Shown here piece after piece: positions 9,378 to 49,970 of a DNA stretch of 64,000 bases. The notes under the pieces are model-generated. The model made no database searches, was not told the origin of the DNA, and was given only the letters and a program-made list of their open reading frames with translations. Position 1 is the stretch's first letter. Each line of letters starts with the position of its first letter. The position numbers were made by a program, and so were the translations under genes. The stretch is from positions 1 through 64,000 of the forward strand of contig JBBHKE010003452.1 in NCBI GenBank assembly GCA_037447655.1, in the 5' to 3' direction. The DNA comes from Zygnema cylindricum (taxonomy: Eukaryota > Streptophyta > Zygnematophyceae > Zygnematales > Zygnemataceae).

Positions 9378-10925
9378 GATTGAGTACAATGCTTATTCTT
9401 TGATTGTTTTTTGAAGTGGAGAAAATAAACAAAGACTCAACGAATGAGTCATTTCGTTTCATTGATATTTTTTTCCAAGAAGTGAAAATAAAAAGGAGAG
9501 AAATTAAATGGGAAATAAGCAAAACTGAAGCCTGAAGGCGTGCTTGGTGTTGAATCTAACACCTAACAAGTTGTACCGTAGCTTCAACGATATTTTTTTC
9601 CGGCTAATTTTTTTTTTTTTTTTCTTTTGTTGTACTACAGTATAGATAGTGTTGTACTATAAGTTTGGTGCAAAAGTAGATGGTTTTTGTGCAATGTTCA
9701 AATGAAAGTTAAGATACAATATCAGCCTTTGTCCATATCTGTGAGGTGACTATATATGTTTTGAACTTACTGCTTGTGATATTTTCGGTGGTGCCATTGT
9801 GATTATTGTTTTTTATGTGTATGACTATTTGGAGAAAAACATTTACTTAGACCTTTGGTTTCTGGATATTGTACTAACCTTTAATATGTGTTAAGGAGAA
9901 TTGTATGGAGAATAAATACGATGCAACAATCAAACGAATCCGATGAAAGTTGCAACTCTATATGATGTAAGTTAAAAAAATCACAAATAAAGTAATGTTT
10001 TGGAGTATCAACTGTGCTAAGCAAAAAATATACAATAATAGTTATTTACCACTTATCTTGTCTCTACACCGACAGTGAACTACCAATTGTAATTATAGGT
10101 TAATCAATGCAATTTTAATAAATGAATTTTGACCCAAAGCCATTAGTTAGTGTCAATAAGACCAATTAGTTGAGTGCCCCACATTGAGCCACGTTGTATA
10201 ACATAATTTACTGTATATAATTCTAATAATGTGCTAACGCTAATAATTCACTCTAAGAGCGACGGGAGTTGTTTTGGAAGGTCGGGCGGATACGGGCGGG
10301 TGATTCATGAAAAAAAAAAAAACGGTTACCGTCGGGTAAGCAAACAATGTCAAAATTGAAGGTTTTGTACTGTCAATACTATCCCAACATTATTGTACGC
10401 TGTTCTCTTGCTATCGTGGAAGGTATAAGGGAGATGTGCCACTAATTTTGTACTTATTCGGGTACGGGCGGGTACGGGTAGTCGCGAGAAATCGAGTTAT
10501 GGTTAGCTTTTTTTTTCGTAAACGCGTTTCGGGTGATGGTTAACAATTTAGGAGTGTGACATAACCGGGTCGGGCGTCGGGTACTCATATTTTGAAAAAA
10601 ACAAAAACGGTCGGTTTCGGTTATCTATAATTTTGACTTTTGCGACCTCTGTTGTCATGCATTTGTTAAAATAATCGTATAACAACTCCGGTGGCGATGT
10701 ATCGTGTACGAATTATCAACATCGCAAGCTATTATAATATCGTATAGTACACAACAACATCATTATTAGGATAAAATAAATGTCACGTAAGATGTTGTAG
10801 CATCGCATACGTACAGAAAAATCTCGTCTCATTTAACAATTTCGCGCGGAATATAGCAGGATACGATGTTGAAATTATATATTACCAAGTACCAACTATA
10901 CGATAAATATCTATAATTATATATT
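9378..10925. other. Intergenic, with CGGG-rich patches
   Basis: Non-coding. It includes the 3' flank of the preceding gene (AATAAA-like signal near 9426). Between about 10262 and 10620, phrases such as CGGGCGGGTACGGGTA and CGGGTCGGGCGTCGGGTA are repeated, each followed by A-runs and AACGG. This looks like a decayed transposon whose ends I cannot place. Confidence 0.55.
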
Positions 10926-11462
10926 GTACACCACGAATCGTAATTAGAGTAAATAACGCTAATTCGGTCGCTCCAAATTTCGACTCTATCACCTTTTATA
11001 GAGTAAATGATTCCAAAATTTTCATTATACTATTTAAAGCAAGGTTTAATTAGCGTGAAAAATTATAATATAGGTTTGATTTAAATAGTGTGGAGAACGG
11101 ACGACGTCCAACCGTGCATAATTGTACTTTTAGAAGTAAAAAGGTACAAACAATGATTTAATAGAATCGCGCTCGCACGTGAAATCGCACTAAACAAAAA
11201 ATAGTACTAACGTCATAATGACGTCAAAACCATACGGATTGACAGATTTTCTACGTCTACGTAATTTAGTGTTCATAATTTCAGCGCGGATAATTATTGC
11301 CGACATAACCCAATATAGAGAACTTAAATAAATTAGAGTAAACTTCCTCTATGAAAAAGTTCTATCACATAAATTAGAGTTCATTACTCTAATTGTTTTT
11401 TTTTTGTTTTTTTACTCTAATTTTTTTATTACTCTAATTAGTAATTACGATTCGCGGTGTAC
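10926..11462. mobile_element. Family B TIR element (about 540 bp)
   Basis: Begins GTACACCACGAATCGTAATT and ends TTACGATTCGCGGTGTAC as an inverted copy. The inner arms are rich in AATTAGAGTAA / TTACTCTAATT. The terminus is nearly the same as that of family A and of the large element at 3276, although the interior differs. Flanking TA is present on both sides. Non-coding. Confidence 0.75.
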
Positions 11463-11828
11463 TGTACAGTACAGTACTGTAGAAGAAACCATGAACTGCA
11501 AAGGCCATAAACATTACCAAGGCCATGGGCAACCATGAATGATGAAAATATCTCGATTACTAAACAAAGAAGATTATTTGCAAAAGCGCTATGGGTTTAA
11601 TCATGAGGTAGAAAGCATGATTGAAATGTAAAATTCTTTACGACCACTATTAAAGGTTAGAGTCGAAAATCCTTACGTACTACAAGCATATCAAACCCTA
11701 AACAACACTAAAAATCTGAAACCGAAAATCACAAAAACAAATACAAAACTATATCAACCCTAACACTACAGTACTCCAAACCCTAAAAACAGCAGAAAAA
11801 GTGCCTCCTCAGCTCACGGCTTAAGACT
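11463..11828. other. Upstream region of the B3/AP2 gene
   Basis: Starts with CTGTACAGTACAGTACTG next to the transposon end. No gene. It precedes the candidate first exon at 11829. Confidence 0.5.
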
Positions 11829-12452
11829 ATGCCACGCGAAAAAGGTCAGAACTACGAATATCATCTATATGCATCGGATGGCATGGTGGTAAGTCAGTAA
11901 TTCCACGACCGTCATTTTACAATGCTCTGTCCAATAAGGGCCGAATCTCTGGCAAGTTAAGGACAACCGCGATAAGTTTGTTGGACTTTACAAGTATGTT
12001 GTCAGAGTTTCCAAGCCAGCCTGGTCTAAAAGTCTCTGATGGTAGTGGACAAAATATGGATATCATTGCTTGTGTGGAAGGTTCCGGAGTTCCCCCCGCA
12101 ACAAAGGAACCGGAGAAATTGTTACAACAGCAATCTTGTGTTGCAATTTTGGACGAAACGGGGATGGTTGATCGAGACCAGTCACATGGCGAGGCAGGGG
12201 AGGAGGTGATTGGAACAAAGGTTTCTGTAAAGGAGAGCTTCATTTCTGACCAAACTAGTGAGCGATTGGGGATCAGGGGAAGAAGCCCTGAGGATGGTAC
12301 TTGTGCAAGGACTGACATAAAAAGGCTCCGAAGTTGCGAATTAGGAGGAGGAGGAGGAGGAGGAGGAGGCAATTATGGAGTTATAACCACTATCAATGCC
12401 CAAAGGTAGAGTCACATAGTCTAACTGGTGTGTTTTGATTCACTGGTATGTT

Positions 12453-12548
<96 letters not shown>

Positions 12549-15500
12549 ATCATTCCACAAAGAACCCCTGTATCATGCAGAGATCTGAGCGTGTATGTCC
12601 TCTTATAGACATGATAGTATGCTTTTCGTGTTTCTTTTTTTATATTTTCTTTGTCGTTTTGAGCAATGGGCTTGCAGGATGCACAGTATTTAGAATTGTT
12701 TTTTGTGTTTTTTGGAGCTGGCATGAAAAACATTTTTCACTATATAGTCAATTTTATTGAGTGGTTTCATTGTTGTGGTATGTAAAAGTTGAATGTTGAA
12801 AGCTGAAGCTTGCTGGCACGATTTTTGTCCTGCAACTGACGCATTTATATGATGCTAATGATGTTTTTTTAATGTTATATCATCCTGTTTGTAAGAGTGC
12901 AGAAAAACTGCCAACTTTACTTTACTTTACTTTACATGGATAACTGCCATTCTCAGCGTTCTGTCAGAAACTTTCTTCACATTGTGTGAAACAATGTTTC
13001 GACAGGATTTTATTCTAGCTTGAGAAGGAGTAGGGTTCATTTGTGCTCTTTGGGCTGAGAATAGACGAGAACAATTGTGCTGAATGTAAATGTTAAATTT
13101 CATTGAACAGTCTGAGGAGTGTTCACAAGATGTCAGGAGTTTTACGAGTTTGTCTCCGAAATTTTGCAGGTGTCGATCAGAAATTATCCCAATCAACCTG
13201 AGTGACTCGGAATCAACGCCTCCGAAAGATAATTCTCTGGTTTTGAGCGGTGAAGGTGGGCGTTCTGCGGAGGATCCGAAAGCTTCGGATAAATTATTTG
13301 TCTATGAACCCTATACCCTCCACATCCACTACAAAGGGTCGGAACTTCCACAATTAAAGTTGTTGAAATCCACTCGGACTCGCTGGCCATCCTGTGCTGC
13401 AAAAGCGGACGAATCTCCTCAAAGATTGTTCAGAGCTTTGGTTTGTGCCCACTTAACACACTTAAGCGTCTATTTGGGACCCATGTACTGGCTCATATTC
13501 CATCGAAGGTCCCCTCTGTTTCCCTTAACATACACAAAGTTCATGGAACATGGAACCTGAGAAGTAAGAAGTAGCCAATGGTAGCCACCTTGCCTCTATA
13601 TTTAAATGGATGAAAATGAAGGTGGGGACGAATAGTTTCAGCTTTGAATCTTGCACCATTTGTATTATGGTAACTTCTCTCTGTTTTGCTTTCTGAGTCC
13701 CGAAGAAAGTGTTGAAGTACCGGCAAATTGCCATGCAGAGAAAGAGAAATGATGGTCAGCTGAAGGCATATGTGAAATAAGACAACCCAAAGGGCAGCTT
13801 TACGTATGTGAAAATCTGCTGTCTAATATTTGAACGATGCTGTCCAATTGCAAACCTGTAGCAGCTGGTATGTTTTTTGCAAGAACTTAACTACTGGAAA
13901 GGCACCCAGTCAGGAAATATCACATGTCAAACCTGTTTGCACATGGTATCCAGTGATTTTTGTTTGGTTGTTTAATGTTTACCTGGACTGCTTGAAGCAA
14001 CAATTTTAAACCGTTAAGTTACCATTGTGGTGGACATTTGCGAGACTATTGCTTACCTTAGTGGTATTCAAAAGTAAGTGGTTTCACTGAAGCTTGCATT
14101 ATGTAGAAAAGTGAAGAGTGTGGACGTCTACGAGGGACATTTTGAGCTGCTTTGTGTTTTTAGTCTGCACGTGTATAGAAATTACAGCAGCATAAAAGTT
14201 AAATTGCATAATCCTGAGTTTCTTAAGCATAAGCAGTCAGTTTTGTATTTCAGTGTGTATTCCAAAATAGAAGCTGTTTTTCACTATAGATCACTACGTA
14301 AAAGTTGTGTTGTAGTACATGGGGTCAACCTTCACAGTATTCTTATGGCCTTCTACAACCAATTAGTGTTTTCTGTTCTCATGTGACGCAGGATTTGCCA
14401 GTGCCTTATATGCAAGACTTCCTTTTGGGACCAGGTGGAAAGTTAACGGTAGAGGATGCAGAAGGCCGGAAATGGGAAATGTCATGGGAGATGGTCACTA
14501 AACCATTTTTTACTATGCGACTTCGTCGGGGTTGGCTCGAATTTGCCCAGAAAAATGGGATCGTCGCAGGCAGTTATGTATTAGTCGAATGTATTTCAAG
14601 CGAACATTTTCGTATGAGATTAGTTGAGCACCAGCAACTGCCGGATACAAGAGTCGTATTGGTTTGTAGTTCCTCACCTTTCACCCGGTTCAATTATTGC
14701 CGCAAGTGGTTTTGATTCAGTGGCATGAAGAATGGAAAAGGCATTACAAGTTTTCCTTTTAAGCAAAGGTCACCACAATAAAAAACATAAACGTGATAAG
14801 AAAATATATCTGGTGACAAATTCCACTTGCTTTGTTCAATTAATGAAAAATTAAGCTCTTGTTTGTTCTTCTAGATCAATATTGTACAATTCCGGCTTTT
14901 AATATAGAACATGAATGAACGTCGAATGCACCTAACTTGGGAGAACTTTCCTAACAGTATTATGGATTATCATTTTTAGCACAGTCAACAGCTTGCTGAC
15001 ACCCACAGTAAATAGTGGTGAATTGTATATGACGCCTGTATGGTGACCAAATTGACTTACTTTCAAACTGCTCCACATAAAAATTTGGTTAAATTTTGAA
15101 CTTCCAGTCACTCTCTCCACTCGTCTAATTGTTACAGGCTACAAACCTGGGTGTGGAAGGGCTGAACTTTGGAACTTAAATTAATTTGATTTTGTATCAT
15201 GGGTGGATACAGGGACGGGGAGCTTTTAATAATGTTCCCAAGGAGCACCGCCTTGCTTTGATTAAGGCAGAAGATAAGAAAAACCAGAAAGTTCAGGAGG
15301 GAAGCAAAGGAGTTGGTCAAAAAAGAAAACAGGAAGTTGAAGTGGCTATTGTGGATGGAAGTGTGAAGAGAAAAAGAGGTAGGCCACGTACGAGGGACAG
15401 AATCAATGGAATTCCCTCCATACCAAAAACCCCAGGTAGCACAAGTATTGTGAAGAAAAGAGGTAAGAATATGGAAGAAACCCATTCAATACAAGTTGTT

Positions 15501-18500
15501 TCTTTTGACACTTTAGAGAAACCTGCTGATGTCATAACTTTGTCAATACAGAGTCAAGGGTTGGGTTTAGATTCAAGAACTGGAAAGTCTGTTACAGAAA
15601 ATGTTGGGTATTTCAGTGAGGCCGGAACTAAGGTTGACTGTAAGGCTTCGTCAAGTACAGCCCTTACTGGAAACGGTTGTCCAAATACAAATTCAACTAT
15701 TCTTAGAAAGGAAGGTGACAGTGAACAAGAACAAACAACAATGACGGAAATGCAAGACAAAGATTCAGATTCTCAAGAATCTCTTGTTTTTCCATGCAAG
15801 TCTAAAAAAGGATGCTCACAACTTTGTATGACCGGGTTCGACTTCTGCATTCTTCATATTTTAGAGGATCCTCAAGCTCCATACTCTTCTTGTAAATACG
15901 GAGATTACGATGTGAATGCTGCCAGAAGTGGACAAATACCGCCCAAAATCTCCAAGTGTCCAATGCCGGTTTATAAGCACAACTCCGATTCCAGGTTGGT
16001 TTTTCATAATATTTTTCCAATTTGTTCATGTCCCCGCATGAATGTTGAACGATTGTTGCCATTAAGGTTTTGTATATGTTACTAGTATTCATGGTAGTTA
16101 GCATCCTCGCTAGATGTTGATCTTGCTTGTTGAGCAAATTTGCGTGCGGCTAAACGCGATATGGATTATACCAATTTGTAGTGTTCTGAAATGCTTGGGT
16201 TTATTATTGTTTTACTAGTGATATATAACGAGCAAGTTCACGATCAAGTAGTGGATACCATTATGTTGAATTATGGATGTGATAGAATGCTCAATGATTT
16301 CATACATGTGGTGGTACATGTTTTGTGCTTGGATGTTTCATGTCAGGCGTGAGATCTTCACTGCCGCGAGTGTTTCCAATGAAACGAGGATTATGTAAAC
16401 ATAAAATTTGACAAAATTTCACGTCATGTAGGGTCAACGTCACGAAATCTTAGTTTTACACGTGTCTTTAAGGTTACTTGTCAGTACTTTTCACCTCAAA
16501 CATACCTCATAACGAACATCGAAAAATCTTCTTTGATACACAAATTAGCTTTTACTGATAAACAGTGGGCGCGATGTGTCACAAGAACTGGTAGTTCCAT
16601 TGGACATGTTTCAAACTCACATAGTAGTTGATGTTGCACATGGAAGATGAGAAATCCAGATTTTCTTGGCTACTGTGGATATTTCCGCCAGATGTTCTAT
16701 ATGTAGGTGTGTTAATATGACCACTATTAAAATTTTTAGTTAAGAAGTTTCTCGTTTTATTTCAGCTGGCACTGAAACATATGACATACAAAACAAAGCT
16801 GGGTCAAAGTGTACCACAAAAAGGACATGCGTATAACATGTATATTTCGTACATAATGGATGAAGCTATATTTTTTGTCATGTATTTCAAAGTATACTTT
16901 TTTCTTTCCTTTTCCACCTATAGCTTTATAGATGGAACTCCATGCGTTGTCGCTGTATGCTTCACAATGTGCGTCACTAGCATAACAAATTTTAAAATTA
17001 GCTATAGAATATAGAGTATAAAACAGTATAGTAGTAAAACGTTTTTGAACAGTCGCACTTTCTCATTTTCGAATATAGATATGTAGGATATAGGAGACCA
17101 AGGACACACACTCTGGCCATTATATCATTTTAACAAAACCTTCAGTTCTGCACATATTCGTACTTATTGATGGTATCGCAACGTGTGTCATGTCAAAAAG
17201 TTGAGACCTTTAAAACTGGTGTAATTTCCCAATTTTGTTTGCCAATTTTTTGTCCTCCAGAAAGCTCAATTACTGTCAAAGCCCACTAACGCCCAACTTT
17301 TTGTTTCTGTTTTATGCAGTTTTTGTCTTCTCCATCGTCCCGGGACTTCTACCGCTTCCATAAAAAAGTATAGAAAAGTTTTATTTGGCAATGATTTTTC
17401 TCGGGTAGTAGCGGCCGCAACTTTGGCTCATGAAGTTATTCAACCACTTTGGGCCATTCCTCCTCAACAGTCTTCTCAAGCAGACCAACAAACCATAGAC
17501 TCTCAAACATTTACATCAGTAAACCCTATTGAAGGTCTATCAAGCGGCCATGAATTGCACCCTTCTAAGAAAAACTCATCCCTGTCTGACTCAAAAAATA
17601 CCCAGGTTTTCACTGGACCAGAGTGTGGGATCTCCCCTTTGAATGAGACAACAAGAGAGCTTAGTAGTAACCCACAACCTCCAAATCTAGTTAGCCCATC
17701 TGTTTTAAGATCCCCAGAAAAAAATTCAAGGTCCCCTTTAGATATAGAGACAGGTATCCAATTACAGTCCGTTAGTAAGGATGGTATTCTTCATACAACT
17801 GAGGCTAAAAACATCGCTGGAGAAGAGATAAGAGAGGATCAATGTTTACTACTAGGTAATCAAGAGGTGGGAGAAAATGTGAGAAAAGAAAACGATGTTC
17901 TTGTCAACAAGCCGAAAGAGATACGCCATATTCCGTCTGGAGATTTTCATACAGATTCTTTGGGAGATTCACAAAGAAACAAAGATTTACCAAGAAACAA
18001 TGTGAAGGCTGTAGGCCTCTTTCCTCTGATGATGAATGACAGAAAGTTTCAACGACAAGGACTGGTCAAAAAAATACAAGAATCAGTTCCTGAATCTAGG
18101 CTTTCGATGACGGGAAAGGAAATGACAGATAGGGGAAATATTGTCCAACAAGCGTACATAAGTCCAACAGCAAATCTGGGAGGAAATCTAAATACCGTCT
18201 ATAAAGACCATGGTTTTACAGAAGCTATAGAGAAAAATACGACTACTAGTGGAAATCCCATAACTCTTAAACCTAAAATTGTGTCCCATTCAATGAATTC
18301 CTCTTTCCCAGCTTTAACACCGAAATCAGTTCAACACCCAACAGCTGGTCCTCTCACGTACATTGGTGTGAGAAGCACAGAATCGGGAGAATTTGTCGCA
18401 GAGATTCCATGTAGCGAATCAGGATGGAAAGTTCAATTGGGGATTTTCTCAAATGCTGAGGAAGCGGCACAGACTTACGATCGTGTGGCTCGAGAGAGAT

Positions 18501-20551
18501 GGGGAGCTCATACTATGACGAATTTTTTTGCTCCAGAGAAGGTGACTAGAGGGAGAAGACTGAGGAAATTGATGAGGGCATCTCATGATTATCAAAGCTC
18601 GTGGAATTCGGATTTATTTGTGGGAGGACATTTCCGTAGGAAGAGCTTGCCAATGTTGGAGAATGTCCAAAAACGAAATGAATCGGAAGGAAAAACGACA
18701 ACTATAGAGATTGGAGAGAAGGGCGGAAAGGGAGAGAAGGGAGGAAAGGGAGAGAAAGCGTCTCTCTCGCATGAAATTGCGGCTGGTTATTCGTTGTTGC
18801 AACTCGCAGGTTTAACTGATAATGGGACTGAGGGGCCTCATCAAAATGATTCCTTTATGAAAACGATAACTGAGGAGAGGTCAACAGAAAAGAACAAAAA
18901 AAGGAAATCAAAAAGGGGTCGTGAACCGATACTTCCTGGAGCGGAAAGTGGGGAGGAGTCTCTCGTTAATACTCAAAGCATCACCACTTTATCTGGAAAT
19001 CAAGACAGACAAGAAGACGAGAATGGGAATTCTCTAGTACTTGCTATTACAGAAAATGGAGAAGGCAATTTAAACAAAGCGGGAGTCTCTCACCGATCTT
19101 CAAAATCGTCGAACAAACAAAAGAGTATTACGAAATTGTCAGAACAAAACATTACTCCAGTGCAAATAGGAGAGGCAAACGGTGATCCTCCTCCGCGAAG
19201 AAAAGGTCAAAGATTCTCTCAACGTCGTCAAGAAGAACCACAGTATTTAGGTGTTGCTTTGAGATTGATGAATGGACGGTATCAGGCTTCTCCATAATGC
19301 TTTTACTAATAAACTTGATCACATCGGCTATTTTGACACCCCTCTGGAAGCTGCTTTAGCCTATGACGTGGCGGCTTCAAAACTGTACGGAACTGAGGCA
19401 AAACTGATCATTTTCCGGCGGATTCCCAGCCGGATTCAACGGGAAAAGTCATAGAAGAACCATCGGAAAGGAGCGAAAAAAGTATAGGAGGAGAGGGAGA
19501 AGCAAGAGGAGGGAGAGGAGGAGAGGGAGAAGCAAGAGGAGGGAGAGGAGGAGGAGGAGGAGGAGGAGGAGGAGGAGGAGGAGGAGGAGGAGGAGGAGGG
19601 GGAGGGGGAGAAGGGGAAGGGGAGAAGGCTAAATTTTCAAAGAAGTCACACAAGGGGACAGCCAAATTGATAGACGGGAACCTGGAGAATGTTGAAGGGA
19701 GAATAGGAGGAGGAGGAGAGGGAGGAGGGGGAGGAGGGGGAGGAGGGGGAGAAAGGCGAGGAGGAGAGAAGGTGAAATCCTCAAAGAGGTCACATCACGG
19801 TACGGCTAAACTGATAAATAGGACCTTGGAGAATGTGGAAGGGAGAACAGGAGTCGTCGTCGGGGGTGGAGGAGGGGGAGGAGGAGGGGAAGGAGGATTT
19901 GGAGGAGGGGAAGGAGGAGGGGAAGGAGGAGTGGGAGGAGGAGGGGGAGGAAGGGGAGGGGGAAGTGAGGTCAAATCCTCAAAAAAGTCACACCAGGTGA
20001 TAGCCAAAGTGGTAGATGGGACCTCGGAGAATGTTGAAGAGAGAATTGAAGGGAGAATTGTAGGGAGACGAGAACTGAAGAGAAAGAGAAAAAGTACAAT
20101 TGAAGTTGTTATTGGTGAGAAACTGGAATTGGGTAAAACTGGAAATAGCGTTGATAATGAAAAGGTCGATAATATTAATAATATCGTGAGAATCGAGGTG
20201 TCCCCGAAAACTGTCGAGAGAGAGGAGAAGGAAGAGGAGAAGGGAGAGGAGAAGGGAGAGGAGAAGATACGGACTTACAAGAAAGGGAAAAAGAGATACC
20301 ACAAAAAGGGAAAAACTGGGGAAGGTAGTACTCAAGATTTGAGCCCATCGAAAAACAAGGAAGGAACAGTCCAAAAGATGTCATCTCCAAAAGTGACGAA
20401 GGAGGAGAAGGTGAGAGTGGTGAATGTCGATTTAGGGGAGAAGGGAAGAAAAAAGAGACGGGATTTAGAAAAAGAACCGAGGAATGTCGTCCGGAAAGAG
20501 GAAAAGACTCAGAGGGAAGGGATTGGGACTAATAATGGTTCGGTTAAGTAG
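11829..20551 (+). CDS. B3 / AT-hook / C3Hc3H zinc / double-AP2 nuclear factor
   Basis: A large nuclear-protein gene. Exons: optional short exon 11829-11888 (ATG, donor GTAAGT; junction unproven), 11996-12405 (safer ATG at 11996), 13170-13440, 14392-14661, 15213-15994 and 17320 to 19297 or 20551. All later junctions agree in phase. Counting from 11996: residues about 222-307 form a B3 DNA-binding domain (RLFRAL, then PYMQDFLLGPGGKL, GWLEFAQKNGIVAGSYVL). Residues about 368-380 carry an AT-hook (KRKRGRPRTRD). Residues about 512-585 match the C3Hc3H zinc domain of KANSL2/INO80D proteins (CSQLCMTGFDFCILHILED, APYSSC, KCPMPVYK, FCLLH). AP2 domain 1 is at about 924-985 (TYIGVRSTESGEFVAEIP, WKVQLGIFSNAEEAAQTYD). 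AP2 domain 2 starts at about 1219 (YLGVALRLMNGRYQAS, then LDHIGYFDTPLEAALAYD), but a one-base shift puts a stop at 19295-19297 and a two-base shift near 19405 restores the frame. Without correction the protein is about 1,236 residues; with net +3 bases it would be about 1,654, with a Gly/Lys-rich tail. Likely a chromatin-linked transcription regulator (inference). Confidence 0.8.
12463..12547. repeat. (AT)n microsatellite in intron
   Basis: About 85 bp of nearly pure AT dinucleotides shortly after the first firm donor site (12406) of the B3/AP2 gene. Its translation into Tyr-Ile runs is meaningless. Confidence 0.95.
19470..19980 (+). repeat. GGA-repeat coding tail of the B3/AP2 gene
   Basis: Three (GGA/GGG)n blocks (about 19480-19625, 19705-19765 and 19860-19970) alternate with a conserved 25-30 residue segment: FSKKSHKGTAKLID..LENVEGR, SSKRSHHGTAKLIN..LENVEGR and SSKKSHQVIAKVVD..SENVEER. 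The non-repeat segments are alike at protein level in one frame only. This argues that the tail is, or recently was, translated rather than being plain satellite DNA. Confidence 0.75.
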
Positions 20552-22975
20552 GAAAAGTAAGAGAGGGAGGGAGGGAGGGAGAGAGGGAGAGCGATAGAGG
20601 TTTGGGTATAATCTTCAAATTTTCCGTTTTTCTATAGAGGAATACGGACAATATTATGTAGGGAAAAATGGGGAAGCTCTCAATTCTTAGCAATGAGATA
20701 GAAAGAAAAAGAAAAAAGAAAAAAAAACAAAAAAAAAAACACAGAAAGTCACGCATTTTATGAGGTATAGAAAGAAATCAAGGTTTATTGTTGAAGAATA
20801 GGTGAATAAAATAATCCGGTTTGAAAAAGGCGTAGAAAATTTGAAAACCTTAAACCAGTCAGCTACACAATATCCATAAAATGGCTTTATGGCTTTTGTC
20901 TTTTTTTTCTTCTCAGTTTTTTTTTTTTTTTTTTTGGAATTAGTGTTCATAAAAATAAGCAAATAGGATTTTTTTTTGCCTATCGCAAACCCCGTTGTGA
21001 TTGGAAGTTGGAGTTTTTTGCGGAGTATCGTTTCGAAATACAGGTGTTTGTTTGAGAAAATCGGAGATTATATGGTTTTCATTTTTTGTAACATTATCTT
21101 TTGTATTTTCATTTTATAGCATATTCAAAGTATTTATAATTGTTGATGGTCATTTTAATACATCTTTTCCACCCTTTGTCGAATACATTCCTCCCTTCTC
21201 TTTTTCCAGGTGGTTTTACCATATTCTAATATTATTAGGAGACGGAAACGAAACAAAAAACGTAAATCTAACGGAAATGGAAACAAAAATGGAAATGGAA
21301 AAATAGGCACCAAGCTCAAAAGCAGAAAACATGTGAAACAGTGAAAAATAGGATTATGGCAAGAGAATACGTTTAAAACTACCACCAAGCTCAAGAGCAG
21401 AAAACATGTGAAACAGTGAAAAAGAGAATTATGGCAAGAGAATAAGTTTAAAACTAAGGACCAAAACACAAAGTTCTAACACCGGTGGATCAAAGCACCG
21501 AACTTGTCTGTTCCATAGTCACTGCAATCTTAAGTATGTTATTAATTGGAAAATAATGTCATCCACTCGAGCGCTCCCATATATTTGGCCAGCATGTCAA
21601 ATACTCGACAATTCTTTTAGGGTTTGGTTTAAGGCTGGAAATTCCTAAAATTTTGGCTCAGGAAGCTTCTGAGAATTTGCCACCAGATGAAACTTCATCC
21701 AGCGCTGGCAAATACTATCTAGCTCATCGAACAGTGTCTCTGGGTACTTTCAGTTCAAAATGTAACGATGCAGTCATCGGGTGCACATCTCGATCCACGA
21801 GCTTTTACCTCCACTCTTTTCGCTCTTTCTTCTTTACACTTTACCCTTTTTTCAATCCCTTTTGTTTTTCACCTTTAGTATCCGGTTTTCGATCCCTCCT
21901 GTTGTGAAGACGATTAAGCTGTTGAAGAATAGTTGTGGTTAGCTCAAATTGTACCGAGTCAAAAAATTTAGTTCCTAAAGTAATGAACGAGTACTTTGAT
22001 AGTTGAAAAAAATAACAGTTCTTGTGATTTGTTCTTTTATGTTTTTTGTGTTTTTTGCATTTAGGTTTTTGACATGTAATGGAATATGCGTTCATGACTT
22101 CTTTGTCCTGTAGTGCTAACAGTTTATTCATTGCACCTCCTTTGTGGAAGACCGAAGATTCACACAAAGATGTCACATATCGTAAGTAACACCACAGTGA
22201 ATTTGTCACAGGTTCCCTCTCCTCTCTCCTCTCTTCTCTCCTCTCTTCCTTCTCTCGTACTGGTTACATATACAGACAAATATTTCCAAAAAATCCCAGC
22301 AAGTTACCAAGAAAAACAAATAAACACCAACGAAATGATATTTAAAGTCAAGTCCCTCAATTGCAGCACAGTTTACCATCCAAAGGCTTCCACTTATGAC
22401 CTTAACATTTCTTTTAACGCCATTATGCATCCTCTTTACACTTTCCCATCTTCCTTTCAATCTCAGAAAGACAAACAGACTTTAACTGCCACAGTAACCT
22501 CGTAGATTGGTTCAAATGTTGAACTGAGATCAAATATTGATCAACAATCCTCCTCATAAGTATATGTTTCAGAAGAGAAAATTGACTTCGAACAGAAAAC
22601 TATCTACTGTTTAAGCCTTTCACATTCTACCTCCCAATTTTGTCTCCCAATTTTGTCCTTAACTGCCCCAGTAGTCAATAGTTACCATACCATATCGCAA
22701 ATGAAATATCGGAGGGAATTAGGTCTTAAGAACTCCCATTGGTCTCGTTCAGGCAGGCACACTTATTAGTGTGTAATTGTATCCTTTACACACTAAAAAG
22801 TCAAAAAGTTTGCAGATTAAATTTGAGATTAAAGACCTGTCTCTCTGAAAATTCACCTGTTGAAAAAAACAAGGAAAAAAGTGCAATAACCTCCATAATT
22901 CATATCATATTATGATTGCCATCAGTGGTATATATACTGGTAGAAAACTCCAGTACTGGCCCTGAAAACTTAGTA
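20552..22975. other. Intergenic, tandem duplication at 21307-21455
   Basis: No supportable gene. Just past the B3/AP2 reading frame there are GGGA repeats (20560-20595), A- and T-runs and AATAAA-like motifs (near 20803) that could serve as its 3' end. A 74-bp unit (CACCAAGCTCAAAAGCAGAA, then ACATGTGAAACAGTGAAAAA) is duplicated in tandem at about 21307-21380 and 21381-21455. Small open frames around 21.6-22.5 kb have no recognisable features. Confidence 0.6.
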
Positions 22976-23190
22976 GGATTTCTCCACGATTGTAACATTT
23001 TCATTTTCTCCCAATGGCCCTAAAACAGCTCTGCCAAACGTAGAGAAAGCTATCCTACCGGGACTTCTCCACCTTCGAAACATTTTCATCTTCTTCCATG
23101 GCTCTAAAACTCCGAAGGCCCTCACAGAAGCTTTCCTACCGGGACTTCTTCACAGTCGAAACCTTTTCATTTTCTCGCATGCGGTCATCT
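22976..23190. repeat. Three degenerate ~75-bp tandem copies at the 3' end of the mL40-like gene
   Basis: The phrases CCTACCGGGACTTCT and GAAACATTTTCATCTTCT/TTTTCATTTTCTC recur three times (near 22990, 23060 and 23140), with ATGGCTCTAAAACTCC-like spacers. The innermost copy overlaps the last codons and the stop of the minus-strand gene at 23136, so the repeat arose from the coding end and its 3' UTR. Confidence 0.75.
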
Positions 23191-23645
23191 ATGAAGTCTG
23201 GCCTTGGAGGCGAAAATGATGCGGCAATTCTTGAAGCTGGAAATGGCGTAAAGTCAGGCACTTTTGCGGCGTCCCTTAGCTTTCCCGCTGGCAGTGCTTC
23301 TATGGCGGCCAGTTTCAGTTTTAGCCTCGTGGATTCACCGGATCGCATCATCCGATGTTCCATCATCTTGAGCCGAGAATACTCCTTTGCCCGAGCCTGA
23401 TCCGCCATGGCTTCCTCAAGAGTACGTTCCACAGTCTTCACATTTGCTGGTTTCAAGGCCATGTCCACAATTTTGGCTGCCTTATCTCTCTCATCACTCC
23501 CTGGCTTTCTCTTCCCCTTAACATCTTTCCCTTCAGAGCCTTTTTTTCCTGATCCGCCTTTTTTGGCCGCCACAGAAGCTGCACTGGCAAGACCGGAAAC
23601 TTGTATTTGTGGGACCATGGAGGTCCAAATATCCATGGTTGTCAT
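23136..23645 (-). CDS. Probable mitochondrial large-subunit ribosomal protein, mL40-like
   Basis: A single open exon on the minus strand encodes 169 residues (ATG at 23645-23643, stop TAG at 23138-23136). A Gly/Lys-rich segment (KKGGSGKKGSEGKDVKGK) precedes a charged helical core (ERTLEEAMADQARAKEYSRL, MMEHRMM) and the block LKLAAIEALPAGKLRDAA, followed by KVPDFTPFPASR. From memory, this order resembles the plant mL40 (MRP-L28 family) proteins of the mitochondrial ribosome; no alignment was possible. Further 5' coding exons are not excluded, as the start is only weakly presequence-like. The stop codon lies inside a locally tandem-duplicated segment, so the extreme C-terminus may be lineage-specific. 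Confidence 0.5.
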   Translation of the reverse strand: MTTMDIWTSMVPQIQVSGLASAASVAAKKGGSGKKGSEGKDVKGKRKPGSDERDKAAKIVDMALKPANVKTVERTLEEAMADQARAKEYSRLKMMEHRMMRSGESTRLKLKLAAIEALPAGKLRDAAKVPDFTPFPASRIAASFSPPRPDFIDDRMRENEKVSTVKKSR

Positions 23646-24504
23646 TTGACCTAACCTCCTCCATCCCGTCTGTCTGAGTAGTACTAAACCCTGCCAAACA
23701 GATAAGACACAAGAATCTCTTAAAGAAACTCACAAAGAAGGCAATAAAAGACGAGACACGGCCAGTAAAGGAAAGAGTCCACTCGCTGCTTCATTGTAGC
23801 ATACGTTTCCACAAACCACGTAACAGTAAGATATTCTGCATTTACTTGAGCAATTTCAATTAGTCACATGTTTCCAAAACCTGAAAGATCTTAATATAAA
23901 AGGTTGACATGCAGGACTTGACCTAAATCATTAAGCTGACATACAGATGTCAATTACACACAAAAAAAACAAACAGAGGCAATTCACCCTTAAAGCAAAC
24001 TGAAGCTCAGCGATACTACTTCCCAACTGCCTCAATTCTACTATTAAGAGAACACACCAACCACCAGCTAATGGCCATAGCAGCAATAACGGAAATAATA
24101 TTGACAACTTTTCATACCAACATTGTACGAGAACACCAAAAACAAGTTCCTACAACATTGTAAAAAGAAGCAGAAGATATTCATTACTGTCTCGCCCCGA
24201 AGATACACACCTAAAAACTAAACAAAAACAGCAAACCCTTTGACAACTCAAGCTGAACCCTAAAAAGGTCATTCTCGAACAAAAACGACGTTCTCAAACA
24301 ACACGTCCTTTCCAAAATATGTCATTTTTCAATTTTTTTCTTTACAGATGTTCAGAAAGAAAACCAAAAAAGTGAAGAAGAAAGGGTCTAACCTGCCACA
24401 TCATGCCCTTTTTGTTGATTCAATACATTACACACAAAGATACAAAGGGCAGAATTATGCTTAAGCCCAAAGCCTCAAAAGAGGCGTAAAAGAAACGACG
24501 AATT
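23646..24504. other. Spacer between two minus-strand genes
   Basis: Upstream region and possible 5' UTR or introns of the mL40-like gene, and the 3' flank of the small ORF at 24505. No other gene seen. Confidence 0.5.
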
Positions 24505-25499: not shown

Positions 25500-28400
25500 A
25501 TGACTCGACTCCGGGAAACTTCTCGTTTACTGCTATCCCTGCGTGGACACGTGGCTACTTGTGGCTCGCTTAGAATAAGTGACTCGCGGGTCGTAAGAAT
25601 GTGCTGTACTGAAGGGTATGCTGACAACAAGACGTCTGTAGCAAGGGAGAGGAGTCCCATAGAGTTGCAGGATTCGAGGAAGAGAATGGTGCATAGTTCG
25701 TCGTTATCCTGGACAATTGGGCGACTTAACTCCGCATTCGAGGTAAACTTTTGGACTGCTTTCACATTTATTATTTTTCTCGTACTTTGATGATACATTG
25801 TCCTGAAGCTGCAAGAAGACAATGGTGTCTGTTTTCATCTTGTCTTTCTGCTGGAAGTATAAATTAGTCATGGTGCATTGGCTGCCTGCTGGGCTCCTCC
25901 TGCTGCTGCAAACATGTAAACTATAGTTCAAAGGTGGGAAAACATACGCGTATATCACGTACAATGCGTGTATAGTATGCGGTGACCACTTATAGCGTTT
26001 CACATTTTTGAACTATGATGTGCCCATTCTCTCAAACTTTGCCATCCTTGTCAGACACTTGTCAATCATATTACTTTTGCTGTATTACACTAGTTGTCAT
26101 TGTCAAAGCATGTTGTATGATATATCATATTATGACGTAGTATAGTAAACACAATGTAGGAAATGCACAGTATATTCTCTATGCCCACAACGTTCTGTTC
26201 ACAATATTCGCTCCCGCGAGAAGGTTTAAATGACGTACCTTTGTGCCATCAAACGCCAGGCTGAGTCATTTTGCAATCTTTCTGCACTTTCTGAAGGTGG
26301 TAAGCCCTAGTGGTTTTTCTTCCCTGGCAAAAAGAAGTTGTAGCTCCAATGCACCCGGACAAGCTGGAGTGTACGAGGTGAAGTTGGCACAGACTGGGGA
26401 AGGAATTGCCGAATGTGAACTCATTCGGTGGTTCGTAGAAGAGGTAAGAATATCCGTCGCACAACAGCATCTTTTGACATCCTTGGCCTGTTGATTAGCA
26501 TGCTTTTTTCACATCTGCCGTGAACACTTAATTGCAACTTTTTTTCTTCAATTGCTGGGGTGGTACAAACTTTTGAGGCTTGACAGTACAATTTCGATAA
26601 TGACCCAGAGTTACTTGTCGCTGTGTTATTCAAATGCACGATGACGTACAGCAGACACATGCATGCAGTTAATATCTCAGGGGTGTCGAATGAAAAGGGA
26701 ATGGTTTGATGAATGCACAAGTTGCTACCAAGCAATTTTTAGCCTCAAGATTTTACATCCCATCCAATCTGTAACTTCGATTTTTAAAGGTGAAGTTTAA
26801 CTTTCAACCACACTTCTGAGTCATTTGCTGGTAGTGAAAGTCATGCCCATGTTAAGTTTGTGGGCCTGCATCCATAGGAGGTCGTATTATTCACCATAAT
26901 TCAGGCTGTTGGAAAATTAAACTTGTCAAGGAGTATTTGCGGCATGCAGGGAGAGACTGTGGCATCTTTTCAGCCAATTTGTGAAGTACAAAGCGATAAG
27001 GCATCAGTGGAGATCACGTCGCGGTATAATGGGAAAGTTATCCGTATGCATTTTACTCCAGGAGAAATTGTCAAGGTATACATTGCATTTGTGTTGTCAG
27101 CAGTGGGTCAATTGACTAAAATAAGGTGTACTTTTTTGCTTAAAGGTCTTTTAATGCCTGGTATATATACAATTGGTTAATTGTCTTTGATAGAAAGGGT
27201 CAGTGACATTTATTGGGCATTGTTATTTTCTTCGCCGCTCCACTGGGGATATTATTGGGAGCCTTAAACAAGATCTTACAGTTAAGAGTTTGGTCAATGA
27301 TCATTTTGATTTCTATGCGATCAAAGTACGTATCGTTTTCCCTCTTCGATAATTTTTAATTTCATACTGAAGCGAAAATGAACATGTGAAACGACATGTG
27401 GTGAATTCTACCAAAAAGGAGGCTGAATGAAATGCTGTATTGTGAATGAGAAAAGCGGAGAATTTGTAGTAGAGATTCTTATGATACCTTTTCCTCAACA
27501 ATTAATAAGGCAAACAACTCAAAAGACTTGTTGTAAAGTTTTTTTTCAGAAGGTGTTTGTTGACAAAGAGTTACCATTCAAATATTACTACGTCCCATCT
27601 TGTGAGTTTTTGCTTTGACTAACTACCCTGGGTCTGAAGGAATTTATGCAACTCGCAGGTGGGTGAGACACTCTGCGATGTGTTGCCTGTTGGAGTGGAT
27701 CTTCCCTCAAACAGTAACCACTCTTCATCTGATTCTATTTCCTCTCAAATGATTCCAAAAGATTCTCAGCATGTTGTGGAAGAGAAGGAGCCACCAGCCA
27801 CAGGGCTGACAGCCAGCAAAGATGTATTAGCCACACCTGCTGTTCGACATATGGCGAAATCCATGGGGCTTAATCTGTCCCGCATCGAAGGCTCAGGAAA
27901 AAGTGGAAGAATTTTGAAGGAGGACATCTTGCAGGCTGTAGCCGAGAAACAGGGAGTGGAGGAAGAGGTGCGAATGGAGGAGACAGCGTTTGAGGGGAGA
28001 CCAGACGAAGAGTCTGAGGGCTGGAGTCCAGGAAGGTCCTCCATTTCATATGAACCTAGGCATGAAGGAGAGGTGTCCGACAATCTGGATTTGAAACATC
28101 GGGCCACAAAGCTGCCTAAAGTTGACAAGGTTATTCCGATCAGGTTCTTTCTTCCCTCTCTCCTCTGTGGCTGATCTCTGTTTTGCAATTTTCTATTACA
28201 AACACCGGTCATGCTAGAATCTGTCTATTCTTGACAAGTTGGTTGAAATCTGAAAAGTAAAAACATGTCCATTTTTTCTCGGCTTGCTTGTTTCTTGGCG
28301 ATACCATATGCAAATCCAGCAGAAATGATGCTTCCGTTGTGCTAAACTCCTCTGAATTACTGCCTTCAATGGGAATTATATGAGTGAACCTACGTGCTTA

Positions 28401-31400
28401 TGTCTTATTTGGTTTTTTATCTCTTATCATTCCTCTATGCTTGTCTTCTGTCGTATCATTTCTCTTTGCTTATAATTCTTGCTATTGTCGTTACTGTACA
28501 GAGGTTATCAACGGACCATGGCAAAAACTATGGCTGCTGCAAATATTGTACCGCACTTTACTTTCATGGAAGAAGTGGAAGTGGATGCTCTGTTGAAGTT
28601 GAGAGCGTCCCTGAAAGACATGGCAAAAGTGGAGGGAATAGAGCTTAGTCCATTATCACTGATGGTGAAAGCTTTGAGCCAAGCGCTGCACAAGTTTCCA
28701 TTATTGAACAGTACAGTGAATTGTGCTGTTACAGAAATTCATTGCAAAGGTGAGCAAAACGATGTCTAAGGAACCTTTGCAAATGGCATTTTCGATAATG
28801 ACAAACATAATTGTGCATTGGGTTTTTTGTTATGGGGATATGTCTTTTAATTGATAACGTCAAATGTTGAACGGCAAAATCACGCGGTGTATGGGGGGGT
28901 GAGAATGAATTTCTTGTTAGCCATGTATTTTCAACGCAAACAAGAATCTCTAAAATGTCGGTGTGTATGTGGAATCAGCTATTTTGCGCTCAACAGCCCT
29001 GTAATATGGGCAAAAGTGTATGATGGGTTTTTCGTTGAATTACGCTCAAAAAATGTCGTTAATTGAAAACTAGTTCAGTATTGGGCCTTCTATCCATATT
29101 GTCTGTATTCTCCGTACCATCTGGAGTGATGTGTCAAGATACAGTTTAGAAAATGATTGTTTAAAACGTTATGGGTTGGGAAATATTGTCTAAACGCCGC
29201 AATGATTCCATTGACGATATATCGGCTCGATAAATCGGTCATCAACAAGTAAAGGAAAATATATACCAAATATCAGTTGGAGACCCTCAATACACTACTC
29301 TAGTAGCGAGTCACGTGGTGCGAACATATCAGTAACAACCATGTAAATGTTGGTCTTCACTTCTTTCACTCTTTCCCATGAAATCTACTGTGATTTTGAA
29401 TCCATGCTTAACTATTGTTACAGTATTTTAAAAATAAAAAAGGACTAGATTAATTTATAAGCATACATTTAATCTTTAAATTAATCTGGAGTGTAGCATG
29501 GGTAATTGCGTTCTATACTGAAACCCGGTATGTAAACCAGAAAAGACAGCACAGTATCATCACAGATCCTACCACGGAGATCACATGGAAGTATACACCT
29601 ATTTTTGTGTGGCCACAAATTGTTGGTACACCACCTCTTTGTGTTCTTATGCTGGACCATACTGGTATCATTTTTTTGAGATGTGCATTCAAATAAGAGT
29701 GCAACACCTTATTTACTAAATGGAATGTATTTGGATTACTATTGAGGCTCTGATTTTGTCTGCAGTGGTTTCTTATCTGTACTAAGGACTCCTCCCGGAT
29801 GAATGCTGATCAATGGTATTTTGAAATCTAAATTGAGAAGTCCGGGTTTTGGAGTGTGGACATGTCTATAGATTTTTTCCGTCACCTTTGGACCTTGGCA
29901 CTGTCTCATGTTCAAATGTTTAAAAACAGTTGAAAATGCTGCCACCCCACACTACATGCATATTATACGGCGGTACAATACGCTTATGCTACGGTGTCGT
30001 CACATATAGCGCTTCTAATTCTTTTCCACATTTGGATTACGCACTAACTGAACTGCATTATGACTCTTGATCAAATTTGTTGAATATGATAGCCGTGGCT
30101 AGTATGGAGAACAGCATTTGTTTGTGGGTCTTTGAGGTTATTTTATCTAGTGTTGGTGAAACAAGTATTTTGGATTCTTTTAACCACCCCACCACCACCA
30201 AACCCCCCATCCCTCGTCCCTCTCCCGTTGTTTTTTTCCTTGTACATTGATGAAGCATACGTTTCATCTGTGTGCATACACAAGTAGCATTATGTTTATA
30301 TTTAAGTATTATTTATGCTCTTTCTAAATCGAGACTTTTCTGATGGTTACCGCTTACCCAGCCCATGGAAAGAGAGATAGAAGGCCACTTCAGTCCAAAT
30401 TTTATGGTTATTTTCAGATTTTTTGACTATTTTATCGATTGTGACAGTGCTGAGCCTGATGTTTTAAATCCATGTCTGGCAAACTGTTAATGGTAGTTAA
30501 CCTTGTACCAGGCATATGTTCAACGTCATATTTTTACGCTTGTACATAAATCAAAGTGGATAATGACTGCCAGAGGACGAATCTGAGTTACCTGCACTAG
30601 TCTTTTTTGTAATGTTCTTTAATTGTTTTGACTTCACAGTATTTAGGAATGTAGCTAGTTCATAAATCCTCCTTAGCATACTGTTAGAACCTCTCTGTGT
30701 TGGACCTGCAGTGCTCAGCAGGAGACATTTATGCTTCTTCTTAATTTTCTTTTACAGCACATCACTGCCTGATGGATATTATCATGTTTATAAGGCCAGC
30801 ATATCATGGTGATTGGAAGTCATTCTTTTTCCATTTTTGCTGTTTCTCTATTCTACCGTAATTTTACATTCGACCCTGTCGAAACAATTTATCTTGCTAT
30901 CCTGAACTTGAACAATTCCTGAACAATTTATCTTGCTCTTGAATTGAATTGCAGGATCACACAATATTGGGGTGGCCATGGCCACAAAAGATGGACTTGT
31001 GGTTCCCAACATCAAACATTGTGAAGATCGATCAATTCTGGAGGTAAGTCTTTGTTTGTTTAATATAATTGTTAGACTTTCTTTCTTGGTTCATTTCAAT
31101 CTGTTTGACAAAACAAGAAGATCAGTTGGACGTCATTTTCTATCTGAGTTTTTGTGTTCAAAGAGTAAACTCTTAGGTTTCATTTTCTTTCTCATTTTGG
31201 TTTTACTTTATTAAATGTAAGTTCTGTTCATTCTTCCAACCTGTGACTTTTTACAGTTTAGATGTGCACAATAAATGGGTTAATTTTCTTTCATATAGAA
31301 TTGCACATGTTTCCTCTTTTGGTGCTTGCATATTGGTTATCCACTCATCAACATACAAACTGATACAAGCTGATGTAAATTGATGCAAACTGTACAAGCT

Positions 31401-45803: not shown

Positions 45804-46383
45804 AAAGTAATGTATCTGTACGGACAGAAGTAATTGATGTTCCAAAAGATTTTGATCTGGCACTTCAGTAATGACGAAGTAAAAAAGTGGATAGGAGTCT
45901 AGATAAAAATGGAACGACGGACAAAATTTTGTAATTCCCTTCCGTATGCGTCGGCGAAATTCGTGCCGGGGCAAAATTCGTGCCGGGGCGAAATTCGTGC
46001 CGGAGCGAAATTCGTGCCGGCAAATAGCGTTTCCTTAAACAATCGCTTCCACAGTTTTGCACACTTGGCAGATTTACATTTGTACTCTCCATTGCATCCA
46101 GCGCCTGAAGAAAATTTAGTCAACGAGGTGAGAAAATTTAGTCAACGAGAGTCCTTGCCAGACTGGCATGATCAAATTAGGACCAGGTCAACAAAAAGGA
46201 CAGTCTCGAATCGCGTGTCTTTTGACCACGTCAACTGCCTTTCCGTACATCCTTTTCTTCTCATATTTAAACCGCATGAAACCAGACCATTTCAAGGAGA
46301 AAGAGAAAAACAAAGATACAAGACACATTTTCCTTGTTTTTAACGCCTCCACCAAAGTGTCACACTGTCACCCTCCTTCACAT
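45804..46383. promoter_or_regulatory. Upstream region of the subtilase gene with a TATA-like box
   Basis: Contains four tandem 17-bp units (GCGAAATTCGTGCCGGG type, 45952-46022) and a TATA-like TATTTAAA at about 46264-46271, some 115 bp before the start codon at 46384. The role is inferred from position only. Confidence 0.45.
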
Positions 46384-46915
46384 ATGGCTTTTTGCCGAGT
46401 AGTACTGACGCTACTCCTTACCGCATTATTCAGCCGCCAATCCGATGCTGCCACGTCTACAGACAAAACGAAAACGTACATCGTCCACGTGGACGGCCAC
46501 GCGTTCCCTGTGGCTTCCAAACTGCATCCGTCTCTTACCAAATCCGTTTCCTCACGGAACTCCTTTATCGCCGCCAATGTCCGACGTAACAACGAGCTTT
46601 TGTCGCGTGTGGACGTCTTGTAAGCTTCCGTACCGTGACGTCATCATGACGTACCATTGTAGGAAAACCCTGAAACGAGTTTGTTGAGGAAAATTTTGTG
46701 GAGTTTCAAAAGAAAGTGAACCAAAAAAGAAAAAAGAGGAGGAGAGAAAAGGTTTTGCAAAATTATGATGATCGTTAAAATCCAAAATCCTTCCTTATAA
46801 TTTCGTGCTATTTTTAATCGGTGCTCTAAAACTCTCTAGTCGTTCTCTCACATAAGAGTTATTCCTGCATTCCCAAAATTACCTTTATAAGAAGGTCCTT
46901 TGAAAGTGTGTTTTG

Positions 46916-46976
<61 letters not shown>

Positions 46977-49655: not shown

Positions 49656-49970
49656 GTACGTTTTTCGTTTTTTGGGTTGAAAAACCTAATGAAAACTTAG
49701 AGCCAAAATTAAGTAGTAAAAAAAGAGAGTACAAAATAGAGTACCGCCGTTTCTAAAGGAAAAAGCACAAAGAAGAAAAGTTTAACCAGAAAAAAATGTC
49801 AATGCTTACTACTGGCAGTCATCTGAATTTGATTTATTTAATTTTTCAAACAAAAGGAAAAATGACGTTCTTGTTAGAGGTAGCGTAGCGCCTTGCACTC
49901 TAATTCTGCGTCTTGTCACAAGTGCGACCTTTTATAAGGAATCCCCTTCGTATTACGTTCATGTAAACTA

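What the first reader, a model, noticed from the sequence alone, without database searches (positions are those of the whole stretch)
11996..20551. Unusual domain chain: B3, AT-hook, KANSL2-type C3Hc3H zinc, two AP2 domains in one gene
Seen: phase-consistent exons link a B3 domain, an AT-hook (KRKRGRPRTRD), a zinc domain with CILHILEDPQAPYSSC and FCLLH, and AP2 domains. Known: RAV factors have AP2 followed by B3 in a short protein; C3Hc3H belongs to KANSL2/INO80D chromatin-complex subunits. I know no described family with B3 first, then a chromatin-complex zinc module, then AP2. Inference: a factor that may recruit NSL- or INO80-type machinery to sequence-specific sites.
Basis: partly seen in the sequence, partly recalled or inferred. 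Interest (0 to 1): 0.88.

Follow-up and report, generated by a model that had tools for sequence, protein, structure and literature searches.

The report
B3-zinc-AP2 plant transcription factor gene
This gene joins several kinds of gene-regulating domain in one protein, an unusual layout already reported in yew, ginkgo and a liverwort; here it appears, in a divergent and partly broken form, in what looks like an alga related to land plants.

Summary
The domain chain is real. Five exons with consistent GT-AG ends and phases give 1,236 open codons holding a B3 domain, an AT-hook motif, an eight-ligand C3Hc3H zinc module and an AP2 domain. A second AP2 domain follows, but two mutually cancelling frameshifts split it; after them the first frame stays open for 382 codons. 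One splice is well supported: it supplies the zinc module's last Cys and His, and a second gene of this genome has the same intron position and phase. The other three rest mainly on phase and consensus.

"No described family" is wrong: B3 + zf-C3Hc3H + three AP2 proteins of Taxus, Ginkgo and Marchantia were reported in 2019 (PMC6781369). This gene differs: two divergent AP2 domains, no Agenet match. NSL/INO80 recruitment has no support beyond the zinc family name.

If so, the layout predates land plants. Verdict: divergent variant of a known, uncharacterised family; moderate interest.

The parts
11996..12405 (+). exon 1 (start codon uncertain; Gly-rich end)
   Evidence: open frame, GT donor at 12406, in phase
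13170..13440 (+). exon 2; its last codons (SPQRLFRAL) may form the first strand of the B3 domain (by eye)
   Evidence: AG acceptor and GT donor, in phase
14392..14661 (+). exon 3; B3 domain 14392-14619
   Evidence: Pfam PF02362 33.9 bits spliced, 38.3 bits for the exon with six bases before it; genome search 37.8 bits
15213..15994 (+). exon 4; AT-hook, linker, first six ligands of the C3Hc3H module
15366..15398 (+). AT-hook motif KRKRGRPRTRD
   Evidence: read from the translation; AT-hook consensus recalled; no Pfam match at E <= 1
15795..15994 (+). zf-C3Hc3H, first part: C512, C518, C529, H532, C544, C566
   Evidence: PF13891 44.1 bits; Cys and His positions, choice of ligands by eye
17320..17335 (+). 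zf-C3Hc3H, last two ligands C580 and H583 (FCLLH), supplied by the splice
   Evidence: same intron position and phase in the C608 gene (L007 8669/9165)
17320..19294 (+). exon 5, open part
   Evidence: open frame, best coding score in frame 0 (the codon table was trained on these same exons)
18359..18526 (+). first AP2 domain (divergent)
19241..19403 (+). second AP2 domain, split: 19241-19294 in the exon frame, 19296-19403 in the next frame
   Evidence: PF00847 18.6 bits, E 0.0023, below cut-off, for the second part; 26.9 bits, E 9.9e-8 with a local profile; both parts joined by X align over 55 residues at 41.8% to an AP2 of this genome
19406..20551 (+). C-terminal low-complexity Gly/Glu/Lys-rich tail, back in the exon 5 frame, with three similar copies of a KSSKKSH-containing unit; stop codon ends at 20551
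   Evidence: 382 codons including the stop, no stop inside; 0 of 5000 shuffles open

Best explanation
A gene for a multi-domain transcription or chromatin factor of the TcA3Bz1 kind (B3, then zf-C3Hc3H, then AP2 domains), in a divergent form, with one copy found in this assembly. Most likely mechanism (inferred): the B3 domain and the AT-hook hold the protein on DNA, the B3 with a specificity unlike that of auxin response factors. The C3Hc3H zinc module is a second nucleic-acid or protein contact. The AP2 folds have lost most residues that read the GCC box and act as weakened or retuned DNA or protein contacts. The Lys/Glu/Gly-rich tail is disordered. Shown: exon chain, domains, order, zinc Cys/His set, frame breaks. 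Inferred: nuclear location, DNA binding, regulatory role. The frame breaks in the second AP2 are either assembly errors or very recent mutations, because the tail after them is still open in the first frame.
For: Open spliced frame and junctions; Pfam B3 and zf-C3Hc3H over cut-off; AP2-1 by PDB sequence, fold and local profile; eight zinc ligands, two supplied by the splice, and the same phase-2 intron directly before [FY]CLLH in the C608 gene; same set of domains reported in Taxus, Ginkgo and Marchantia (PMC6781369); 1 of 7 matches to the exon 5 DNA is the gene itself, the other 6 are 44-51-base pieces. The ARF motif RGQPxR is absent from this B3 (alignment), as the paper reports for TcA3Bz1. 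AP2-1 keeps 1 of 7 GCC-contact residues of ATERF1 (residue list and numbering recalled; alignment: R147I, R150 kept, R152T, W154S, R162P, R170K, W172Q).
Against: Two AP2 domains, not three. No direct sequence comparison with TcA3Bz1 or PTQ32953.1 could be made (protein search off). Pfam AP2 is below cut-off, and the own-genome PF00847 search missed it. Adding exons 1-2 does not raise the B3 score (38.3 bits for the exon, 33.9 for the whole protein). The B3 model is of low confidence (pLDDT 53), its best fold matches are not significant (E 0.42-0.52, mostly kinases after row 3), and PDB sequence matches for B3 are weak (E 0.14 and 1.3). Junctions 12405/13170 and 14661/15213 have no support beyond phase and consensus. 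No transcripts.
Confidence: 0.7

Rival explanations
1. Two neighbouring genes: a B3 gene (exons 1-3) and a zinc-AP2 gene (exons 4-5), joined only on paper.
For: Two Physcomitrium proteins with zf-C3Hc3H and three AP2 but no B3 are reported (PMC6781369); the 14661/15213 junction has no domain across it; the frame of exon 3 stops at 14715 if the intron is read through.
Against: Phase-0 GT-AG junction, with exon 4 following in frame; the fused set of domains is reported in three land plants, in Taxus as a unigene from transcriptome data.
Confidence: 0.1
2. A decaying gene: the frameshifts in the second AP2 and the lost DNA contacts in the first mark a pseudogene in progress.
For: Two frame breaks, with seven stop codons in the exon frame between them; AP2 domains divergent from the 20 other AP2 rows compared (AP2-1: best matches 44-49% over 41-45 residues; AP2-2: 41.8% over 55) and at 16.4 Pfam bits.
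Against: The rest of the frame, the B3 domain, all eight zinc ligands and the 382-codon tail are open; the two shifts cancel, so the tail frame was kept until very recently or the shifts are errors.
Confidence: 0.14
3. An adaptor that brings NSL- or INO80-type complexes to DNA sites.
For: The zinc module belongs to PF13891 (44.5 bits), the family of KANSL2 and INO80D (recalled).
Against: No interaction evidence; no PDB sequence match for the module at E <= 10; PF13891 matches at three other places of the genome, whose identity as KANSL2 or INO80D was not tested.
Confidence: 0.15

Closest known systems
TcA3Bz1 / Gb_05581 / PTQ32953.1 (MARPO_0093s0032), the three-AP2 AP2/EREBP subgroup (PMC6781369)
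   Same: B3 N-terminal to AP2, zf-C3Hc3H in the same protein, B3 without the ARF RGQPxR motif
   Different: two recognisable AP2 domains, both divergent, the second frame-broken; no Agenet match (Agenet reported for PTQ32953.1). The place of the zinc module in TcA3Bz1 is in a figure that I could not see; AT-hook and tail could not be compared
Physcomitrium three-AP2 proteins with zf-C3Hc3H (PMC6781369)
   Same: zinc module N-terminal to AP2
   Different: those lack B3; this one has B3 and two AP2
RAV (AP2 then B3)
   Same: AP2 and B3 in one protein
   Different: reversed order and an added zinc module; the genome has an AP2-B3 pair in RAV order on C2006
KANSL2 / INO80D (zf-C3Hc3H; recalled)
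   Same: C3Hc3H module with eight ligands
   Different: sits in a protein with B3 and AP2; no other family feature was tested

Membership tests
TcA3Bz1-type AP2/EREBP subgroup | B3 domain N-terminal to the AP2 domains | tested here: met
TcA3Bz1-type AP2/EREBP subgroup | zf-C3Hc3H domain in the same protein | tested here: met
   44.5 bits, cut-off 27, on the predicted spliced protein
TcA3Bz1-type AP2/EREBP subgroup | three conserved AP2 domains | tested here: not met
   one intact divergent and one split AP2; no third in 10000-24000
TcA3Bz1-type AP2/EREBP subgroup | B3 lacks the ARF RGQPxR motif | tested here: met
   alignment with an ARF chain (6sdg); family statement
TcA3Bz1-type AP2/EREBP subgroup | sequence relationship to TcA3Bz1 or PTQ32953.1 | not testable with these tools
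   protein search switched off; sequences not held
RAV | AP2 followed by B3 | tested here: not met
   order is B3, zinc, AP2
Auxin response factor | RGQPxR DNA-contact motif in B3 | tested here: not met
   alignment
KANSL2 / INO80D | zf-C3Hc3H with all eight ligands | tested here: met
KANSL2 / INO80D | member of the NSL or INO80 complex | not testable with these tools
   needs biochemistry

The most novel reading that the evidence does not exclude
The B3-C3Hc3H-AP2 layout arose before land plants and is still present in Zygnematophyceae, with later loss in flowering plants (absence there is the Taxus paper's statement). In this alga the AP2 modules have lost their usual DNA-reading residues, so an AP2 protein reads DNA mainly through B3 and the AT-hook.
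Probability: 0.4. Interest if true: 0.55.

Novelty: new variant of a known kind. Interest (0 to 1): 0.4.

Why it matters
It would move a neglected transcription-factor family, reported from bryophytes and gymnosperms in the one paper found, back to the algal relatives of land plants. It would also give a natural case where a multi-part DNA-binding protein has changed which part reads DNA. That paper says that the roles of these proteins are still to be found, so a Marchantia knock-out would be a direct test.

Tried and rejected
Single-sequence structure models gave low confidence: B3 pLDDT 53; AP2-1 pLDDT 50 overall, with block means 51, 79, 63, 82 and 74 for residues 11-60. The B3 fold search was not significant (first three of 449 rows are B3 structures at E 0.42-0.52, followed mostly by kinases). 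A first AP2 tree was invalid because minus-strand loci had not been turned and the start of the second AP2 was read in the wrong frame; in the redone one support around both window AP2 rows is low (0.54 and 0.65), so no placement is claimed. A motif pass failed (no row found) for the same reason of orientation and a poor pattern. An intron across the frame breaks was considered: no GT-AG pair of plausible length restores the AP2 frame by eye (not computed). Programmed frameshifting was considered and not pursued, two shifts within about 110 bases making it unlikely (judgement, not a test). Considered whether the C608 gene is a full paralogue: with the spliced protein, blastp found only the C3Hc3H stretch (38% over 68 residues) in 40 kb of C608, while phmmer at E <= 0.1 found nothing, not even that stretch; Pfam saw only zf-C3Hc3H in the three C608 ORFs scanned. 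A search for photosystem proteins (PF00223) to name the organism did not complete. Paper searches for NSL in plants and for streptophyte genomes were seen as listings, apart from the papers named in the full report.

Full report
What was checked. The five exons 11996-12405, 13170-13440, 14392-14661, 15213-15994 and 17320-19294 join with GT-AG ends and consistent phases into 1,236 open codons. Pfam finds B3 (33.9 bits, cut-off 30.1), zf-C3Hc3H (44.5, cut-off 27) and a sub-threshold AP2 (16.4, cut-off 33.3) in that order. The own-genome PF00847 search did not list the window's AP2. It is secure by other means: PDB sequence matches (WRI1 E 4.7e-10, ATERF1 E 8.5e-7), fold matches (rows 1-9 of 159 are AP2 structures, best ATERF1 E 1.2e-3), and a profile from 16 of the 21 AP2 rows of the same genome (five truncated rows left out, several of the 16 identical), which scores it 36.0 bits, E 1.4e-10.

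Support for the splices. The zinc module has Cys and His at C512, C518, C529, H532, C544, C566, C580 and H583 in the spacing of the family; the last two lie on exon 5. The gene on contig C608 has a C3Hc3H module whose intron sits at the same place and phase, directly before YCLLH. This junction (15994/17320) is therefore well supported. The exon 2/3 splice puts SPQRLFRAL before the B3 match, which looks like the first strand of a B3 domain, but only by eye: the Pfam match starts at profile position 16 and the exon alone scores more (38.3 bits) than the whole protein (33.9). The other two junctions rest on phase and consensus alone. The open frame extends upstream of 11996, so the start is uncertain.

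The second AP2. Its start (QYLGVALRLMNGRYQASP, 19241-19294) runs into a stop at 19295. Its second part (NAFTNKLDHIGYFDTPLEAALAYDVAASKLYGTEAK, 19296-19403) is in the next frame. The exon 5 frame resumes at about 19406 and runs 382 codons (stop included) to 20551. Of 5000 first-order Markov shuffles of that stretch none was open, nor of 5000 for the less repetitive part 20060-20551 (this keeps dinucleotide content only on average, and the tail scores low for coding because of its repeats). Joined by X, the two parts align over 55 residues at 41.8% identity with an AP2 of the same genome. The two shifts cancel. They are either assembly errors or recent. No second copy was found to settle it: the exon 5 DNA search gave 7 matches, 1 being the gene itself and 6 being 44-51-base pieces of a purine-rich repeat.

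Domain quality. In the alignment with ATERF1, AP2-1 keeps 1 of 7 GCC-box contact residues (positions and numbering recalled from the 1gcc work, not from a call), with one Arg-to-Lys change. Of the 20 other AP2 rows compared, 20 keep WLG and 15 keep GVR (four of the other five are truncated there, one reads GVV). The B3 lacks the RGQPxR motif of auxin response factors (alignment). Its PDB matches are weak (VRN1 E 0.14, ARF 6sdg E 1.3).

What is known. PMC6781369 (BMC Plant Biol 2019; [quoted passage not shown] Gb_05581 of Ginkgo has the same domains, and Marchantia PTQ32953.1 has them plus an Agenet domain. Two Physcomitrium proteins have zf-C3Hc3H and three AP2 without B3. A Picea protein is highly similar at its N-terminus with one AP2. 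The paper states absence from Selaginella and angiosperms, no protein with more than two AP2 in Picea abies, loblolly pine and Gnetum, and that the B3 of TcA3Bz1 lacks RGQPxR. The only paper naming TcA3Bz1 or the Marchantia gene was this one (1 of 1). In the listings (20 of 720 shown) and 47 I saw no other title or abstract start with this layout; those papers were not read for it, apart from the ones named below. So the layout is already described, and this gene is a variant of it: two AP2 instead of three, no Agenet match at E <= 1. By the paper's three-AP2 criterion it is not a strict member.

The genome. G000 has 352.8 Mb in 2,689 contigs. It gave 21 AP2 matches of 26 candidates, 9 B3 matches of 12, the window's among them, and 4 zf-C3Hc3H matches of 6, the window's among them; these counts are lower bounds. 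Contig C2006 carries AP2 and B3 in RAV order (that they form one gene was not tested), a sign that RAV exists separately. C1071 carries three ERF-type AP2 domains in 5 kb; no B3 or zinc match was listed there. The AAA_6 dynein search found 4 pieces at one place, closest to cytoplasmic dynein 1 in the 60 of 84 PDB rows shown, and no flagellar set, which argues against bryophytes, Chara and other lineages with flagella (recalled biology; the search scores only its best candidates). Size, Copia-like reading frames (by eye) and one contig pair 85-96% alike fit Zygnema cf. cylindricum SAG 698-1a_XF (359.8 Mb, 3,587 scaffolds, two k-mer peaks read as diploid, elsewhere called probably polyploid, 29.8% Copia; PMC11096116 passages with Table 1). 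This is an inference; the contig numbers differ and no marker gene was compared. The main text of PMC11096116 holds no 'AP2', 'B3 domain' or 'C3Hc3H'; I read its section 8 and passages. PMC11341676, PMC9520294 and PMC12266102 were seen as passages only, which say nothing on this layout.

Mechanism. Most likely a nuclear DNA-bound regulator with B3 and AT-hook as DNA anchors, a zinc module for a further contact, and AP2 folds with a changed surface. Recruitment of NSL or INO80 machinery remains a guess from a family name: no PDB relative of the module was found at E <= 10, and PF13891 matches lie at other places of the genome as well.

Noticed in passing
C1071:106780-111573 (L042): Three ERF-type AP2 domains on one strand within 5 kb, in at least two open frames: a possible three-AP2 gene without B3 or zinc match.
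   Followed up: partly
C2006:199708-203676, minus strand (L036, L047, L049): RAV-like order, AP2 then B3.
   Followed up: partly
C1490:41316-43021, minus strand (L053, L054): A single dynein heavy chain place, closest to cytoplasmic dynein 1, with one TGA inside the first match; could be a contaminant contig (not tested).
   Followed up: partly
C608:144674-152471 (L007, L008): Gene with a 1,665-codon open frame ending in zf-C3Hc3H, followed by an exon with an AATLAHD motif like AATLAHE of the window gene; function unknown.
   Followed up: partly
window 46132-49697 and 26234-34227, + strand: Subtilase gene (Peptidase_S8 33.1 bits) and an E2 acyltransferase-like gene (E3_binding 54.2 bits); extents by eye.
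   Followed up: no
window 56731-57177, + strand: Histone deacetylase fragment (25.3 bits, under the cut-off of 27.9) shortly before an N gap and long simple repeats.
   Followed up: no
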